A stretch of 64,000 nucleotides of DNA from the NCBI RefSeq assembly GCF_024713945.1, contig NC_134680.1, forward strand, positions 3,062,001 through 3,126,000, written 5' to 3'. Positions within the stretch are counted from its first letter, which is position 1; each line of letters opens with the position of its first letter. The translations under genes were made by a program, and so were the position numbers. Shown here one piece after another: positions 39,331 through 44,577 of this stretch. The notes below the pieces were generated by a model, which saw nothing but the letters and a program-made list of their open reading frames with translations, was not told the origin of the DNA and made no database searches. The stretch comes from Dermatophagoides farinae. Its lineage: Eukaryota > Arthropoda > Arachnida > Sarcoptiformes > Pyroglyphidae.

Positions 39331-39339
39331 GTTTAATTG

Positions 39340-39478
39340 GGTTGTAGGTTAAAATCCCGAAAACAAAAACCCCGAAAACCGAAACACCGAAACCAAATGA
39401 CCGAAAACAAAAACCCCGAAAAAAAATTACCCCGAAAAGTTTTATCCCGAAAACAAAAACCCCGATCAGTTACCCCGG
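39340..39478 (+). repeat. Left terminal inverted repeat (CCCGAAAAC minisatellite)
   Basis: Tandem, slightly variable units CCCCGAAAACAAAAA (15 bp) and CCCCGAAAAAAAATTA (16 bp), with one CCGAAACACCGAAACC block. The first 65 bases match the inverted right end almost perfectly. Confidence 0.9.
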
Positions 39479-40400
39479 AGGGATTATTGGTCAGAAAACA
39501 ATGAAATTAGAAAAAATTTGTTACCTTTTCCATGAAAACTTTAAAGCTTAAAGAATTTGAAAGCTGATATTAGCTTGTAGTTAAAGTTTTTCAGTGAAAA
39601 AGTTAAATTTCAAGTTTTTTAAATTTCAAATTTTAAAGAACAAATGGTTAATTGATTATAATATCTGAACTAATATGGAATAATATGCAAATGTTAATAT
39701 AAATTTATATAAAACCCATCATTGATTCGGTCAATGAATCGTATTGACGTTAAATTGACATCAATTTGTCCTTCTCAAATAAAAAATAAATTGGAGCGAA
39801 TTTGTGTTGGATGTTTGAAAAATTATCAGATATCTGGATTTCTGATTTTGGATTCTCAAAAAAAATTTTAACATTTTTTTTCAAATTAACTGATCATTTA
39901 AATAAGAAAAACTGACCAAAATTGATTTGCTTTTTTATGTTTAGACACAATTTTACCGATCATTTTAAACTGAACCGACTGACCAATCTGATTGTATGTA
40001 AATGTAAAAATGCTCTAGTCTGCTCAAAATGTTATGGTAATCATGAATCACGAACATACACTTCATCCGACTTTTGATCGGTCAATTATTTAGTATGTGC
40101 TTATTGTTTGTGGTGGAATCAACACAGGATTTTTTTTTTTTGTTAATTGTTGATTAAAAATTATTCAGTTTTAAGAAAATCTTGTTCTTTTCGAATTCAT
40201 ATTTTCATAATCTTGAACCAAAAATGTTTCAATATTTCGTTACTCTAGCAACCGATTATTATGAGAATCGGTTTCACATCTATTATGGGATATTGAGCAA
40301 AGACAAATTGAAAAACTTCCGGTTCGAATAACAATCGACTCTATTTTGATAATGCAAATCATCAATAATGAATCTAATTTTGCTATATTTCGAAACAAAA

Positions 40401-40547
40401 CATTATAATTTGGGCGTAAAAACTTTAATACCATTTAAAGTACTTGAATATATCGGCGAATATAGGGAAGAGATAAAATCAATCAACGCTGAATCTGGCT
40501 ACAATATGAAACAAAAGCTTTTAGAAGAACAAAAAGAGCTTATTTAA
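40401..40547 (+). pseudogene. Coding-like fragment inside the transposon, 48 codons
   Basis: Open frame starting HYNLGVKTLIPFKVLEYIGE and ending at TAA. It looks protein-like (charged, amphipathic), but I cannot assign a family. A near-identical copy lies in the second unit at about 43110-43257. Possibly part of a decayed transposase. Confidence 0.4.
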
Positions 40548-40617
40548 ACTGAAGTGAGCATCTTTGAACAAAATTAAAAATTTTCTCAGTTACATCAAGA
40601 AATAAAAATTTGTACCA

Positions 40618-40740
40618 TCTAACATTAGTCTTGGTGAACTTGAAAATTGGTGTTTGCAGCATGATAAAATTCCAGATAATGATCATAAACCATTTGTTGT
40701 ATCTTATATTGAATCATTTAAATTAGTTATAAATTTTTAA
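40618..40740 (+). pseudogene. Coding-like fragment inside the transposon, 40 codons
   Basis: Frame reads SNISLGELENWCLQHDKIPD and goes on to a TAA stop. The text resembles C-terminal parts of Mutator-like transposases as I remember them, which would agree with the 9-bp target duplication; that is a weak inference. The same frame is preserved in the second copy at 43328-43450. Confidence 0.4.
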
Positions 40741-42284
40741 TCGATGATACATTAATAAAATTGAATAAAAAATTAATAAAAATGACTTATTTTGAATTTT
40801 CACTGATTATTTTTCTTATTTTACCAAACCGACCGGTTTTCATTTTAAAACATTTATAAATTAACTGATCAATCACATAAAAAACTGACCGAAATTCATA
40901 TATTTTCTGATCTTTTTCAAATAACCAAAACTTTTAAAAAATTACTGACCAACTAACCGCTTATAATACTGACCGAAAAAATGGCAACCAAAAAAAAAAT
41001 TACCTATAATCAAATCTTTTGATTGAACAAAAAAAAAAGAATTCAAACGAATGAATATGGTTAAAACTTGTCGTCGACAATAACAACAACAACAACAATA
41101 CACATGAAACATGCACTTTTTTCATTAGATGGAATCATCGGGCTATTTATTTCAATGTATCATTTGAATTTTTTTTTTTTTGAAATTAGGCAAAAGAAAA
41201 GAAATAAATCAAGTAATTTTCAACATTTTTTTCACCATAATCGAATGTTATCATTATTGTTATAGATAAATTTCCGTTTTCGAAACAAAAATCGTGAATG
41301 AATGAAGCAAATGAGAAAAAAAAACATTAATCTTTCCGTTTGAATATGTTGAATTTCCGTTTTTTCCACAGTTTTTTTTTACTTCTTCTTTTGTCTATGG
41401 TTATATTTGATCATTCGTTTTGATGAATGATTTTCAACCAAACAATGAACAATGGTAAAAAAAATTCAAATTCTTTTTCACTAAAAAAAAAAAAAATGAG
41501 AACTCAAGACTCGTTTTTTAACATTCGTTATACAGTTGTTGTTTTTGTTGTCGTATAACAAAAAAAAAAAAAAAATTTAAATTCAAATGAATGTACGAAC
41601 GAAACAAAAAAAAAATCAAAGAATTTTGTCTGAATTTGTCTTGTTTATTGATGAATATTGTTAATGGTACAATCTATTCTATTATAAATACGATAATATT
41701 GATGTGATGATAAATTTGAAAACTTTTATATTTTTTTGACATTCATGCGAATTTTTATTTTTATTATTTGGAACATGATTTTTTTATGTACTTGAAAAGT
41801 CATAAAAAAATCATATCATTTATAGTATGAATGAAAGAGAAAATGTTCAGAGTTTACATATTCGGATTTATTGTTTTTTTTTTGTTGGAAATCAAAAAAC
41901 AAAATATGCTTTGCATAATTAAGAAAATTGTGTGGCAAAAAAAAAAAAAAATATTCCGGTAGTGATGGATAATGAGGCTTTCACTCCGCCAACACTTTCA
42001 AACAAATTGACAAAAGTTAAAGTTGGAAAAAAAAGTTTCAACAACAACACTAACAAAAAATGAAATTTCATTTAATCTATGGATTATTGACAACAAATTA
42101 AAAAATATCATCATGAATATCTAGATATTAATTTAAAATTTAAAACTTGTGGTGATTGTATGATGAATAAACTAGATCTAATGACTTCTTTTCGTAGAAT
42201 CCGGTACATGAAATTTCTCACAGTAATAGTGTTAATCTCCGTTCATTTAAAGTTTAAGGGAACAAGCCATTTTCTACGTTTTTG

Positions 42285-42475
42285 TTTTCGGGGTTTTTGT
42301 TTTCGGGGTAATTTTTTTTCGGGGTTTTTGTTTTCGGGATAATTTTTTTTCGGGATAATTTTTTTTCGGGGTTTTTGTTTTCGGGGTTTTTGTTTTCGGG
42401 ATAATTTTTTTCGGTCATTTGGTTTCGGCGTTTCGGTTTTCGGGGTTTTTGTTTTCGGGATTTTGACCTACAACC
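42285..42475 (-). repeat. Right terminal inverted repeat (CCCGAAAAC minisatellite)
   Basis: Reverse complement of the left end but with more units, about 190 bp against 140. The extra copies of the 15/16-bp units show that the array has expanded or contracted after insertion. Confidence 0.9.
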
Positions 42476-43059
42476 GTTTAATTGATCAGTATTTTGAGGG
42501 AATTGGTCAGTTTTATATGAGATTGATCAGTTCTTTGGAGGATATTATTGACCAGTTATTTTTTGTTGAAAAAGAAAACTTCAACTATTACACAGAGCTT
42601 GTAGTAAAGTTCAAGTTCTTTTATATTCATATTTTCAAGCTTATATAAAAGCAAAATTGTTATTTGTTCATGACTTCTGATTTGTCATTCAATGCAAATG
42701 TTTCATTGATTTAATAAAACATAAACATTTTTCTGAACATTTTTTGTGTTAACAAAAATTTGTTACATTTTCTTTGAACAGATCTTTTAAAAAAGAAAAA
42801 GCACGTTGTTTGTTTTTTTGCTTTTTTATGTTTAGACACAATTTCCCGATTCCGGTTCTGTAGGGAACCGAACCGGTTCTCAAAAAAATTATCAAAAAAA
42901 ATTTTTTTTTTTGTTAATTGTTGTTATTAAAAATTATTATTAAGAAAATCTTGTTCTTTTCGAATCTCATAATCTTGAACCAAAAATCAATGAAAATTTC
43001 GACTCTATTCTGGTGAGAAAAATCTCATGTCTTATGGGTGAAAACTGTTCGAATCGTTT

Positions 43060-43850
43060 AATGCAAATCATCAATAATGAATCTAATTTTGCTATATTTC
43101 GAAACAAAACATTATAATTTGGGCGTAAAAACTTTAATACCATTTAAAGTACTTGAATATATCGGCGAATATAGGGAAGAGATAAAATCAATCAACGCTG
43201 AATCTGGCTACAATATGAAACAAAAGCTTTTTTGAAGAACAAAAAGCGCATATTTAAACTGAAGTGAGCATCTTTGAACAAAATTAAAAATTTTCTCAGT
43301 TACATCAAGAAATAAAAATTTGTACCATCTAACATTAGTCTTGGTGAACTTGAAAATTGGTGTTTGCAGCATGATAAAATTCCAGATAATGATCATAAAC
43401 CATTTGTTGTATCTTATATTGAATCATTTAAATTAGTTATAAATTTTTAATCGATGATACATTAATAAAATTGAATAAAAAATTAATAAAAATGACTTAT
43501 TTTGAATTTTCACTGATTATTTTTCTTATTTTACCAAACCGACCGGTTTTCATTTTAAAACATTTATAAATTAACTGATCAATCACATAAAAAACTGACC
43601 GAAATTCATATATTTTCTGATCTTTTTCAAATAACCAAAACTTTTAAAAAATTACTGACCAACCCCTTATAATACTGACCGAAAAAATGGCAACCAAAAA
43701 AAAAATTACCTATAATCAAATCTTTTGATTGAACAAAAAAAAAAGAATTCAAACGAATGAATATGGTTAAAACTTGTCGTCGACAATAACAACAACAACA
43801 ACAACAACAATACACATGAAACATGCACTTTTTTCATTAGATGGAATCAT
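43060..43850 (+). repeat. Long direct repeat, copy 2
   Basis: Second copy, outside the bounded transposon and lacking the CCCGAAAAC termini. Both copies stop matching after ATGGAATCAT. The left flank (42524-43060) still shows patchy homology to 39462-40350, so this is a diverged or truncated relative of the same element. Confidence 0.93.
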
Positions 43851-44090: not shown

Positions 44091-44577
44091 GAGTGTCTTC
44101 ATGCGATGAACCCACAAGGTTATCCTATAGGATCTATAGACACAAACTTGGATTAAACATTGGATCGATTATCATGTTCAGTCGCAATATTGAACCACAA
44201 AGTGGTTTGCTCAATGGCACGCGTTTATCCGTAAATAGACGCAGCATTGATGCTTGAATATTGACAAGGAGGCTATGATTCATTTTGCAGCAAAACGATC
44301 GAGATCTTAAGCTACCATTTAAATTGGTTCGTGGACGATTTCCTGTCGTATTGGCTTTTGCTCTGACAATTAATTAATGTTTTAAGGAAAATCTTTCGAT
44401 AAAATAAGTGTGTACCTTCCTACACCAGTATTGCAACATGGAATGATTTATGTGGCTTTTTGCCGCTGCAAAAATCCTAATAATCTGAAGATTTTTGTTC
44501 ATGAAATTGAGGAAAATATCAACAATGACCACAGTATCTATACCAAAAATATTGTATTTCTTCAACTTTTTGATTAG
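44091..44577 (+). pseudogene. Helitron-type Pif1 helicase, broken remnant
   Basis: C-terminal part of the helicase carried by Helitron rolling-circle transposons. Three reading frames in turn show family text: ECLHAMNPQGYP from 44091; LNIGSIIMFSRNIEPQSG, LLNGTRL, then LPFKLVRGRFPVVLAFALTI from 44147; SFDKISVYLPTPVLQHG, IYVAFCRCKN and NLKIFV from 44392 to a TAG at 44575-44577. Motif V is broken by a stop just after LTIN. At least two frameshifts and several stops make it non-functional. The upstream helicase motifs and the Rep domain are not found in the window. Confidence 0.85.

What the first reader, a model, noticed from the sequence alone, without database searches (positions are those of the whole stretch)
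39331..42484. A complete DNA transposon with 9-bp target duplications and minisatellite-built inverted ends
GTTTAATTG stands on both sides of a 3136-bp unit whose ends are inverted copies. The ends are made of tandem CCCCGAAAACAAAAA-type units, and unit numbers differ between the two ends. The combination of 9-bp duplication and minisatellite termini is known from Rehavkus/Mutator-like and Foldback-type elements. A version in this kind of genome, with such regular CCCGAAAAC ends, may be undescribed.
Basis: partly seen in the sequence, partly recalled or inferred. Interest (0 to 1): 0.8.

Follow-up and report, generated by a model that had tools for sequence, protein, structure and literature searches.

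The report
Dust-mite jumping DNA with repeat-built ends
This is one of about eleven copies of a small 'passenger' transposon in a house dust mite genome, with ends built from short repeats, scraps of other mobile DNA inside and no working enzyme of its own; it looks like a new family of a kind already known from insects and nematodes.

Summary
Its inverted ends are a 15-bp terminus plus tandem 15/16-bp CCCCGAAAACAAAAA-type units. It is a family: eleven full copies in the genome share both ends; ten have a perfect 9-bp duplication and one has 8 bp. Assembly statistics match Dermatophagoides farinae GCA_024713945.1. Arms hold 2-14 units. Six copies differ by under 0.8%, so movement was recent. 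The longest open frame in any copy is 163 aa, and none matches a MULE transposase. Interiors include scraps of other mobile DNA: copia-like pieces, piggyBac fragments of two lineages, and a second repeat-armed family. The window copy is a chimera: its last 425 bp match young copies at 99.8%, while 0.8 kb of its interior is 98% identical to its own right flank. Best reading: a non-autonomous, Pack-type Mutator-like (MULE) element with foldback-like composite ends, closest to Muta1/Muta5 of Aedes and Tm1 of root-knot nematodes, moved in trans by a MULE transposase that was not found linked to these ends. The MULE assignment is inferred from duplication length and end anatomy. New family, known kind; 'complete' holds for the ends only, and Rehavkus proper is not shown.

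The parts
39331..39339 (.). left 9-bp target-site duplication GTTTAATTG
39340..42475 (+). the transposon copy (3136 bp, non-autonomous, chimeric)
39340..39354 (+). 15-bp terminus GGTTGTAGGTTAAAA (one base from the family's GGTTGTAGGTCAAAA)
39355..39465 (+). left minisatellite arm: degenerate 15/16-bp CCCCGAAAACAAAAA-type units; inner arm motif missing on this side
39466..39816 (+). interior; 39618-39816 is about 82% identical to the young copy L009, and GATCAGT/GGTCAG-type motifs of family B occur at its start
39858..41138 (+). interior stretch colinear with the element's own right flank 42751-43850: 40350-41138 is 98.2% identical to 43059-43850, the other pieces 75-94%
41139..42050 (+). interior sequence with no other long match in the genome search (only a 64-base, 78% match on C2)
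42051..42475 (+). right end shared with the young copies, 99.8% over 426 aligned columns; includes a copia-like scrap, inner arm motif and right arm
42254..42278 (-). inner arm motif CGTAGAAAATGGCTTGTTCCCTTAA
42279..42460 (-). right minisatellite arm, 13 CCGA units
42461..42475 (-). 15-bp terminus, exact family form GGTTGTAGGTCAAAA
42476..42484 (.). right 9-bp target-site duplication GTTTAATTG
42476..43695 (+). family B copy (GGTCAGT/GATCAGT-repeat arms, limits approximate) into whose left arm the element appears inserted; likely source of the interior duplicate

Best explanation
A non-autonomous Mutator-like (MULE) transposon family with foldback-like composite ends. SHOWN: 11 copies share a 15-bp terminus, a variable array of 15/16-bp units and (in 20 of 22 arms) an inner unique motif; each is flanked by an 8-9-bp duplication; six copies are nearly identical; the interiors examined contain scraps of other mobile elements. 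INFERRED: a MULE-type transposase supplied in trans recognises the terminus and the repeated units, cuts the element out and inserts it at 9-bp staggered cuts; unit numbers drift by slippage or unequal exchange; interiors are replaced when breaks in the inverted, repetitive arms are repaired with template switching to nearby or unrelated DNA. In the window copy one such filler was probably its own right flank (a 98% duplicate about 2.7 kb away), and its right end came from, or was converted by, a young copy.
For: 11 full copies with matching ends and duplications: 10 of 11 perfect 9 bp, 1 of 11 8 bp. Arm anatomy, 2-14 CCGA units per arm, left and right counts differing in 6 of 11 copies. 15 pairwise comparisons among six copies: 0.13-0.74%, gaps ignored. 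A possible paralogous empty site: the flanks, joined with one GTTTAATTG, align without gaps over 49 bp (41 identical, counted from the printed alignment) across the site to the left arm of the family-B copy in L025. Scraps in interiors: Pol_BBD PF22936 E 5.8e-6 in L009 and 5.6e-6 in L017, both 27.0 bits against a cut-off of 27; PF13843 in L018 and L017. Window 40350-41138 is 98.2% identical to 43059-43850; of it, 41000-41138 matches only there in the genome search. The genome holds a FLYWCH plus MULE gene remnant. Anatomy matches Muta1/Muta5 (PMC5225508) and Tm1 (PMC3169594), passages seen.
Against: No copy with these ends was found to carry a MULE transposase. The only PF10551 hit in the genome (C3:1397048) is below cut-off there (26.5 against 27.6 bits; 27.7 when its frame was scanned alone) and sits in a broken gene; of five family-motif probes with up to 1 mismatch over 6.3 kb around it, four had no match and TTTTCGGGG had two, one in each tandem copy. 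So the superfamily rests on duplication length and end anatomy. Capture by gap repair is inferred; no allele without the filler was available, the direction of the 0.8-kb duplication is not proven, and gene conversion could give much of it. 912 bp of the interior (41139-42050) has no source in the genome search. The empty-site match is modest: only 10 bp lie left of the duplication, the arm is repetitive, and the other B loci tested gave lower-scoring gapped alignments to other arm repeats (best 59, 65 and 60 against 89).
Confidence: 0.74

Rival explanations
1. A Rehavkus element proper (the PHD-finger sister lineage of MULEs), seen here as non-autonomous copies only.
For: 9-bp duplication, long TIR and minisatellite; PMC6446971 lists Rehavkus for Arthropoda and Annelida with 9-bp TSD and 26-400-bp TIR (passages).
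Against: In that paper the minisatellite lies before the 3' TIR; here it builds both arms. The MULE remnant found has FLYWCH. A PHD-type transposase was not specifically searched for. The same table also lists Phantom MULEs of aphids with a minisatellite after the transposase gene.
Confidence: 0.1
2. A P-superfamily foldback like Galileo of Drosophila: long internally repetitive TIRs and a THAP-type transposase acting in trans.
For: Galileo has repeat-rich foldback-like TIRs although it is a P element (abstracts in the listing; a passage).
Against: 10 of 11 copies have 9-bp duplications; P-superfamily elements make 7-8 bp (recalled). The PF21787 search gave 0 hits in this genome, but its control rang nowhere, so absence is not shown.
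Confidence: 0.06
3. The piggyBac-like gene in the L018 copy is the family's own transposase (a piggyBac clade that makes 9-bp duplications).
For: L018 has family ends and its own 9-bp duplication and encloses three PF13843 pieces on one strand; L017 also holds a PF13843 piece in the same orientation relative to the other copies.
Against: The two pieces look like different lineages: 42-47% aa identity to each other over 43 aa; L017's is 44% to the long open C2 and C5 genes over 77 aa; L018's is 83% over 66 aa to a fragment at C6:1517732, where no family end was found. L018's gene starts only at profile position 75-77. No PF13843 match fell in the other 9 of 11 copies. piggyBac makes TTAA duplications (recalled).
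Confidence: 0.04
4. The window's interior B stretch was inherited within a diverged subfamily, and the 98% match to the flank is ectopic gene conversion, not capture.
For: Pieces of the interior are 82-88% similar to the young copies' interior, so B-like DNA was already in the family; identity along the duplicate is uneven, 75-94% in short pieces and then 98%.
Against: The duplicate runs about 150 bp past family B's right end (40989 and 43695) into DNA that matched nothing else in the genome search, which plain conversion between two B elements does not explain.
Confidence: 0.3

Closest known systems
Muta1 and Muta5 (MULEs of Aedes aegypti; PMC5225508, passages seen)
   Same: 8-9-bp duplications; TIRs of 145 and 151 bp built from a short terminal motif plus subterminal tandem repeats (12 bp with 3-4-bp spacers; 15 bp); derivative copies with variable repeat number and heterogeneous interiors; Muta1 called a type-2 foldback.
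   Different: Muta1 and Muta5 have predicted full transposases (504 and 554 aa); none was found linked to these ends. This family has an inner unique motif after the array; end sequences were not compared, as the papers' sequences are not held.
Tm1 (Mutator/Foldback family of root-knot nematodes; PMC3169594, passages seen)
   Same: 9-bp duplications; composite TIR with terminal motif, a variable array of 13-15-bp repeats differing between ends, and an inner conserved motif; most copies without transposase; one species without a detected autonomous copy.
   Different: Tm1's outer 7-bp motifs are asymmetric; here the two termini are inverses. Tm1-A encodes a FLYWCH-MULE protein.
Rehavkus (PMC6446971, passages seen)
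   Same: 9-bp duplications, long TIRs, minisatellite.
   Different: PHD-finger transposase and a minisatellite before the 3' TIR in that description; here arrays in both arms and no transposase found.
Tetris (foldback of Drosophila virilis; PMC4079207, passages seen)
   Same: No autonomous copy found; 8-10-bp duplications; tandem repeats within the TIRs; variable middle domain.
   Different: Repeat unit about 220 bp, TIR up to 1,735 bp.
Pack-TIRs of animals, incl. Ssk-FB4 (PMC8277862, passages seen)
   Same: TIR elements with captured DNA; there 160 Pack-TIRs (56.9%) lie under 15 kb from the parental copy.
   Different: Here the filler recognised is other mobile DNA and flanking DNA; no host gene was recognised in the frames scanned.

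Membership tests
Mutator-like (MULE) superfamily | 8-10-bp (typically 9-bp) target-site duplication | tested here: met
   10 of 11 copies 9 bp, 1 of 11 8 bp
Mutator-like (MULE) superfamily | autonomous member with a MULE transposase (PF10551) between the same ends | tested here: not met
   PF10551: one sub-cut-off hit in the genome, at C3, without family ends; no hit in any of the 11 copies; longest frame in any copy 163 aa. Intron-split or very diverged genes, or an autonomous copy absent from this assembly, could be missed
Mutator/Foldback composite-TIR type (Muta1, Tm1) | inverted ends of terminal motif plus variable number of about 12-15-bp tandem repeats | tested here: met
Mutator/Foldback composite-TIR type (Muta1, Tm1) | heterogeneous interiors in derivative copies | tested here: met
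Rehavkus | PHD-finger transposase related to MULE | not tested
   no PHD-type transposase model was searched in the genome
Rehavkus | minisatellite before the 3' TIR only (as described in PMC6446971) | tested here: not met
   arrays in both arms
piggyBac | TTAA duplication | tested here: not met
   11 of 11 copies have 8-9-bp duplications of varied sequence
Merlin/IS1016 | IS1595-type transposase (PF12762) | tested here: not met
   0 hits in the genome; control rang in 1 of 14 genomes
P superfamily (Galileo-like) | P-type transposase RNase H (PF21787) | tested here: inconclusive
   0 hits, but the control rang nowhere
Pack-TIR | captured non-element DNA whose parental copy is identifiable | tested here: inconclusive
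   window 40350-41138 against 43059-43850, 98.2%, including about 150 bp outside family B; direction of copying not proven

The most novel reading that the evidence does not exclude
The family is mobilised by a transposase of another superfamily, most strikingly a piggyBac-like protein as carried by the L018 copy, which would make composite minisatellite ends and 9-bp duplications a property that arose outside MULEs in mites.
Probability: 0.05. Interest if true: 0.7.

Novelty: new member of a known kind. Interest (0 to 1): 0.3.

Why it matters
It adds a recently active DNA transposon family to a medically relevant mite genome in which few transposons have been listed: the 11 full copies sum to 26,861 bp, against 55,004 bp of all DNA transposons in Table 2 of the assembly paper (PMC11074847, passage seen; whether any of these copies is among them I could not see). 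The copies are a compact natural series for watching composite arms change unit number and for tracing how TIR elements swap their interiors, including one case where the probable source still lies next door. It would surprise a specialist in detail, not in kind.

Tried and rejected
piggyBac as the element's engine: thought unlikely because the PF13843 pieces in L017 and L018 look like different lineages. The right interior shared by L016 and L018 as a remnant of an autonomous gene: set aside, because in L016 it lies in a stretch whose two halves give near-identical translations on opposite strands, so probably another inserted element. MULE remnant on C3 as the autonomous copy: no family end or inner motif within the 6.3 kb read; TTTTCGGGG with up to 1 mismatch matched twice. 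Merlin: no hit. The peptide at 40606-40737 occurs only here and in the flank; my impression that it resembles MULE N-termini is recalled and unsupported (Pfam's best was E 0.21 to an unrelated family). Of 11 terminal 15-mer sites outside the copies, 8 were read: 2 (L034, L055) run on into the repeat array, 6 do not and were dropped; 3 were not read. L012 was left out of the age estimate because its global alignment crosses an internal rearrangement, L013 because it stands apart at 1.5-1.7%. Frames of all 11 copies were listed only; Pfam was run on chosen frames of 9 of the 11 loci and the window, apart from the genome-wide family searches. One weak match there (zf-C2H2_10, E 2.4e-4, below cut-off, L013) I take to be the retroelement zinc knuckle.

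Full report
Organism. The window lies at C4:3062001-3126000 of a 62,435,336-bp, 22-contig genome. C4 is 7,117,990 bp and C6 is 5,241,854 bp, exactly the scaffold and contig N50 values printed for the Dermatophagoides farinae assembly GCA_024713945.1 (PMC11074847, table passage seen). I therefore take it to be that assembly; the total differs by about 7 kb from the printed 62,428,314 bp.

Observation. The arms are inverted and built of 15/16-bp units. Chance is excluded by the genome: 11 full copies share the ends. The duplications are GTTTGATTC, TTTTTATTG, CATCATAAT, AGATTATTA, GAATGGAAC, ACTGAATAC, TAAAATTTC, CAATGAATG, GTTTGAAAA and GTTTAATTG, all 9 bp and perfect, and AAAAAAAT (8 bp) for L012, which has 2 mismatches if read as 9 bp. 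Copies: C4:1489424-1491727, C3:327694-330032, C10:813024-815383, C3:884122-886274, C10:1418126-1420240, C5:2729539-2731867, C6:805999-808361, C9:2845445-2848500, C6:2881566-2884219, C1:1076440-1078491 and the window copy, 2052-3136 bp long.

Anatomy. Each end reads: 15-bp terminus GGTTGTAGGTCAAAA (one base different at one end of L010 and of the window copy); an array of CCCCGAAAACAAAAA and TCCCGAAAAAAAATTA units with variants near the terminus; then CGTAGAAAATGGCTTGTTCCCTTAA. The inner motif is present in 20 of 22 arms and missing in the window's left arm and one L017 arm. CCGA counts per arm range from 2 to 14 and differ between the two ends in 6 of 11 copies (L009, L015, L016, L017, L018, window); in the window and L017 the arm without the inner motif was counted over positions 16-130 only. 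There are also lone arms at C3:6719713 (L019/L034) and C4:3602331 (L020/L055) and an inner-motif fragment at C9:1300697. Genome-search counts are lower bounds by the tool's own statement.

Age. Six copies (L009, L010, L011, L014, L015, L016) differ by 0.13-0.74% in 15 comparisons, gaps ignored; L013 differs from them by 1.46-1.74%; L012 gave 6.4-7.9%, which I do not interpret because its alignment crosses an internal rearrangement. The family has moved recently.

Interiors. The longest stop-to-stop frame is 163 aa (L017), then 137 aa (L018); the other nine copies have at most 83-100 aa. The 163-aa frame has an integrase-like match below cut-off (PF00665, E 2.1e-4), and L009 and L017 have a Pol_BBD match at the cut-off; with zinc-knuckle- and protease-like motifs I read these as Ty1/copia, by eye and from recalled motifs. 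L018 and L017 carry PF13843 (piggyBac) pieces of what look like different lineages, so I treat them as cargo, not the engine. A Pfam scan of ten further frames from L010-L015 and L017 gave no transposase.

Window copy. Its right 425 bp are 99.8% identical to the young copy L009, and the match stops abruptly against all nine copies compared. Its left interior is a diverged relative (about 82% over 39618-39816). Between them lies a stretch colinear with the element's own right flank: 40350-41138 against 43059-43850, 98.2% over 796 columns, with shorter pieces at 75-94%. Family B ends near 40989 in the interior and 43695 in the flank, so the duplicate runs about 150 bp beyond B; 41000-41138 matches nothing else in the genome search, although the tool warns that simple and very common sequence is skipped. 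41139-42050 has no long match elsewhere (only 64 bases at 78% on C2). Family B has GGTCAGT/GATCAGT-repeat arms and is seen also at C3:6846188, C10:1933683, C4:1054533 and C5:228555. The element appears to sit inside B's left arm: the joined flanks align across the site, ungapped, to the B arm in L025, 41 of 49 identical. This is modest evidence: only 10 bp lie left of the duplication, and repeats in the other B loci also gave gapped alignments across the joint with lower scores.

Transposase. PF10551 rang once, weakly, at C3:1397048; the adjacent frame has FLYWCH (E 4.8e-9), and the MULE frame scored 27.7 against a cut-off of 27.6 when scanned alone. The gene lies in a 1.18-kb, 98% tandem duplication, is split over frames, and shows no family terminus or inner motif in the 6.3 kb read. 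Merlin gave none; the P-type search was uninformative.

Mechanism. Best reading (0.74): passengers of a MULE-type transposase that is not linked to these ends in this assembly. The terminus and arrays are the recognition region; array length drifts; interiors are exchanged by break repair with template switching. The 2021 survey of animal Pack-TIRs reports 56.9% of them under 15 kb from the parental copy and invokes gap filling (PMC8277862, passages seen); the window copy fits that pattern. Gene conversion with the neighbouring B copy remains a serious rival for the interior.

Comparison. The anatomy is that of Muta1/Muta5 (PMC5225508) and Tm1 (PMC3169594). In the rows shown by the literature searches (7-15 rows each, often of far more matches) no title or abstract concerned this family or a composite-TIR MULE in mites; the 2026 survey of arthropod MULEs (PMC13359780) had no occurrence of 'mite', 'Acari' or 'Arachnida' in its main text. 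Repbase could not be consulted.

Verdict. Real, confirmed, a new family of a known kind; interest 0.3.

Noticed in passing
window 42476-43695; L023-L026 (C3:6846188, C10:1933683, C4:1054533, C5:228555): A second family (B) with arms of GGTCAGT/GATCAGT-containing repeats and an end near GGTACCATTTTTCCGGTTAGTA; related pieces also lie inside the young copies. Target duplications not determined.
   Followed up: partly
window 43847 onward: A high-copy sequence end starts here (25 further hits of 52-54 bp at 98-100% in a search that scored 40 of 89 candidates), and a Pif1_2B domain follows at 44093-44254 (PF21530, E 1.7e-9): probably a Helitron.
   Followed up: partly
L060 (C2:4364159-4365220) and L061 (C5:3037117-3038178): Two nearly identical long open piggyBac-type genes (523 and 558 aa, PF13843 E about 1e-94): possibly a recently active piggyBac in this mite.
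   Followed up: no
C3:1392563-1397173 (L096, L059): FLYWCH-MULE gene remnant in a 98% tandem duplication, near interstitial AACCT repeats, which resemble arthropod telomere repeats (recalled).
   Followed up: partly
L016 element positions about 2118-2827; L018 element positions 1628-1840: A 0.7-kb insert with inverted halves in L016, shared in part with L018: probably a further nested element.
   Followed up: no
L019 (C3:6719713-6719845): A lone family arm without the inner motif, about 250 bp from a copy of the probable Helitron end: perhaps an arm picked up by that element.
   Followed up: no
L009 element positions 567-800; window about 40000-40129: A cysteine-rich, zinc-knuckle-like stretch shared by young copies and window; looks like a LINE or gag nucleocapsid scrap by eye; Pfam gave no match above cut-off.
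   Followed up: partly
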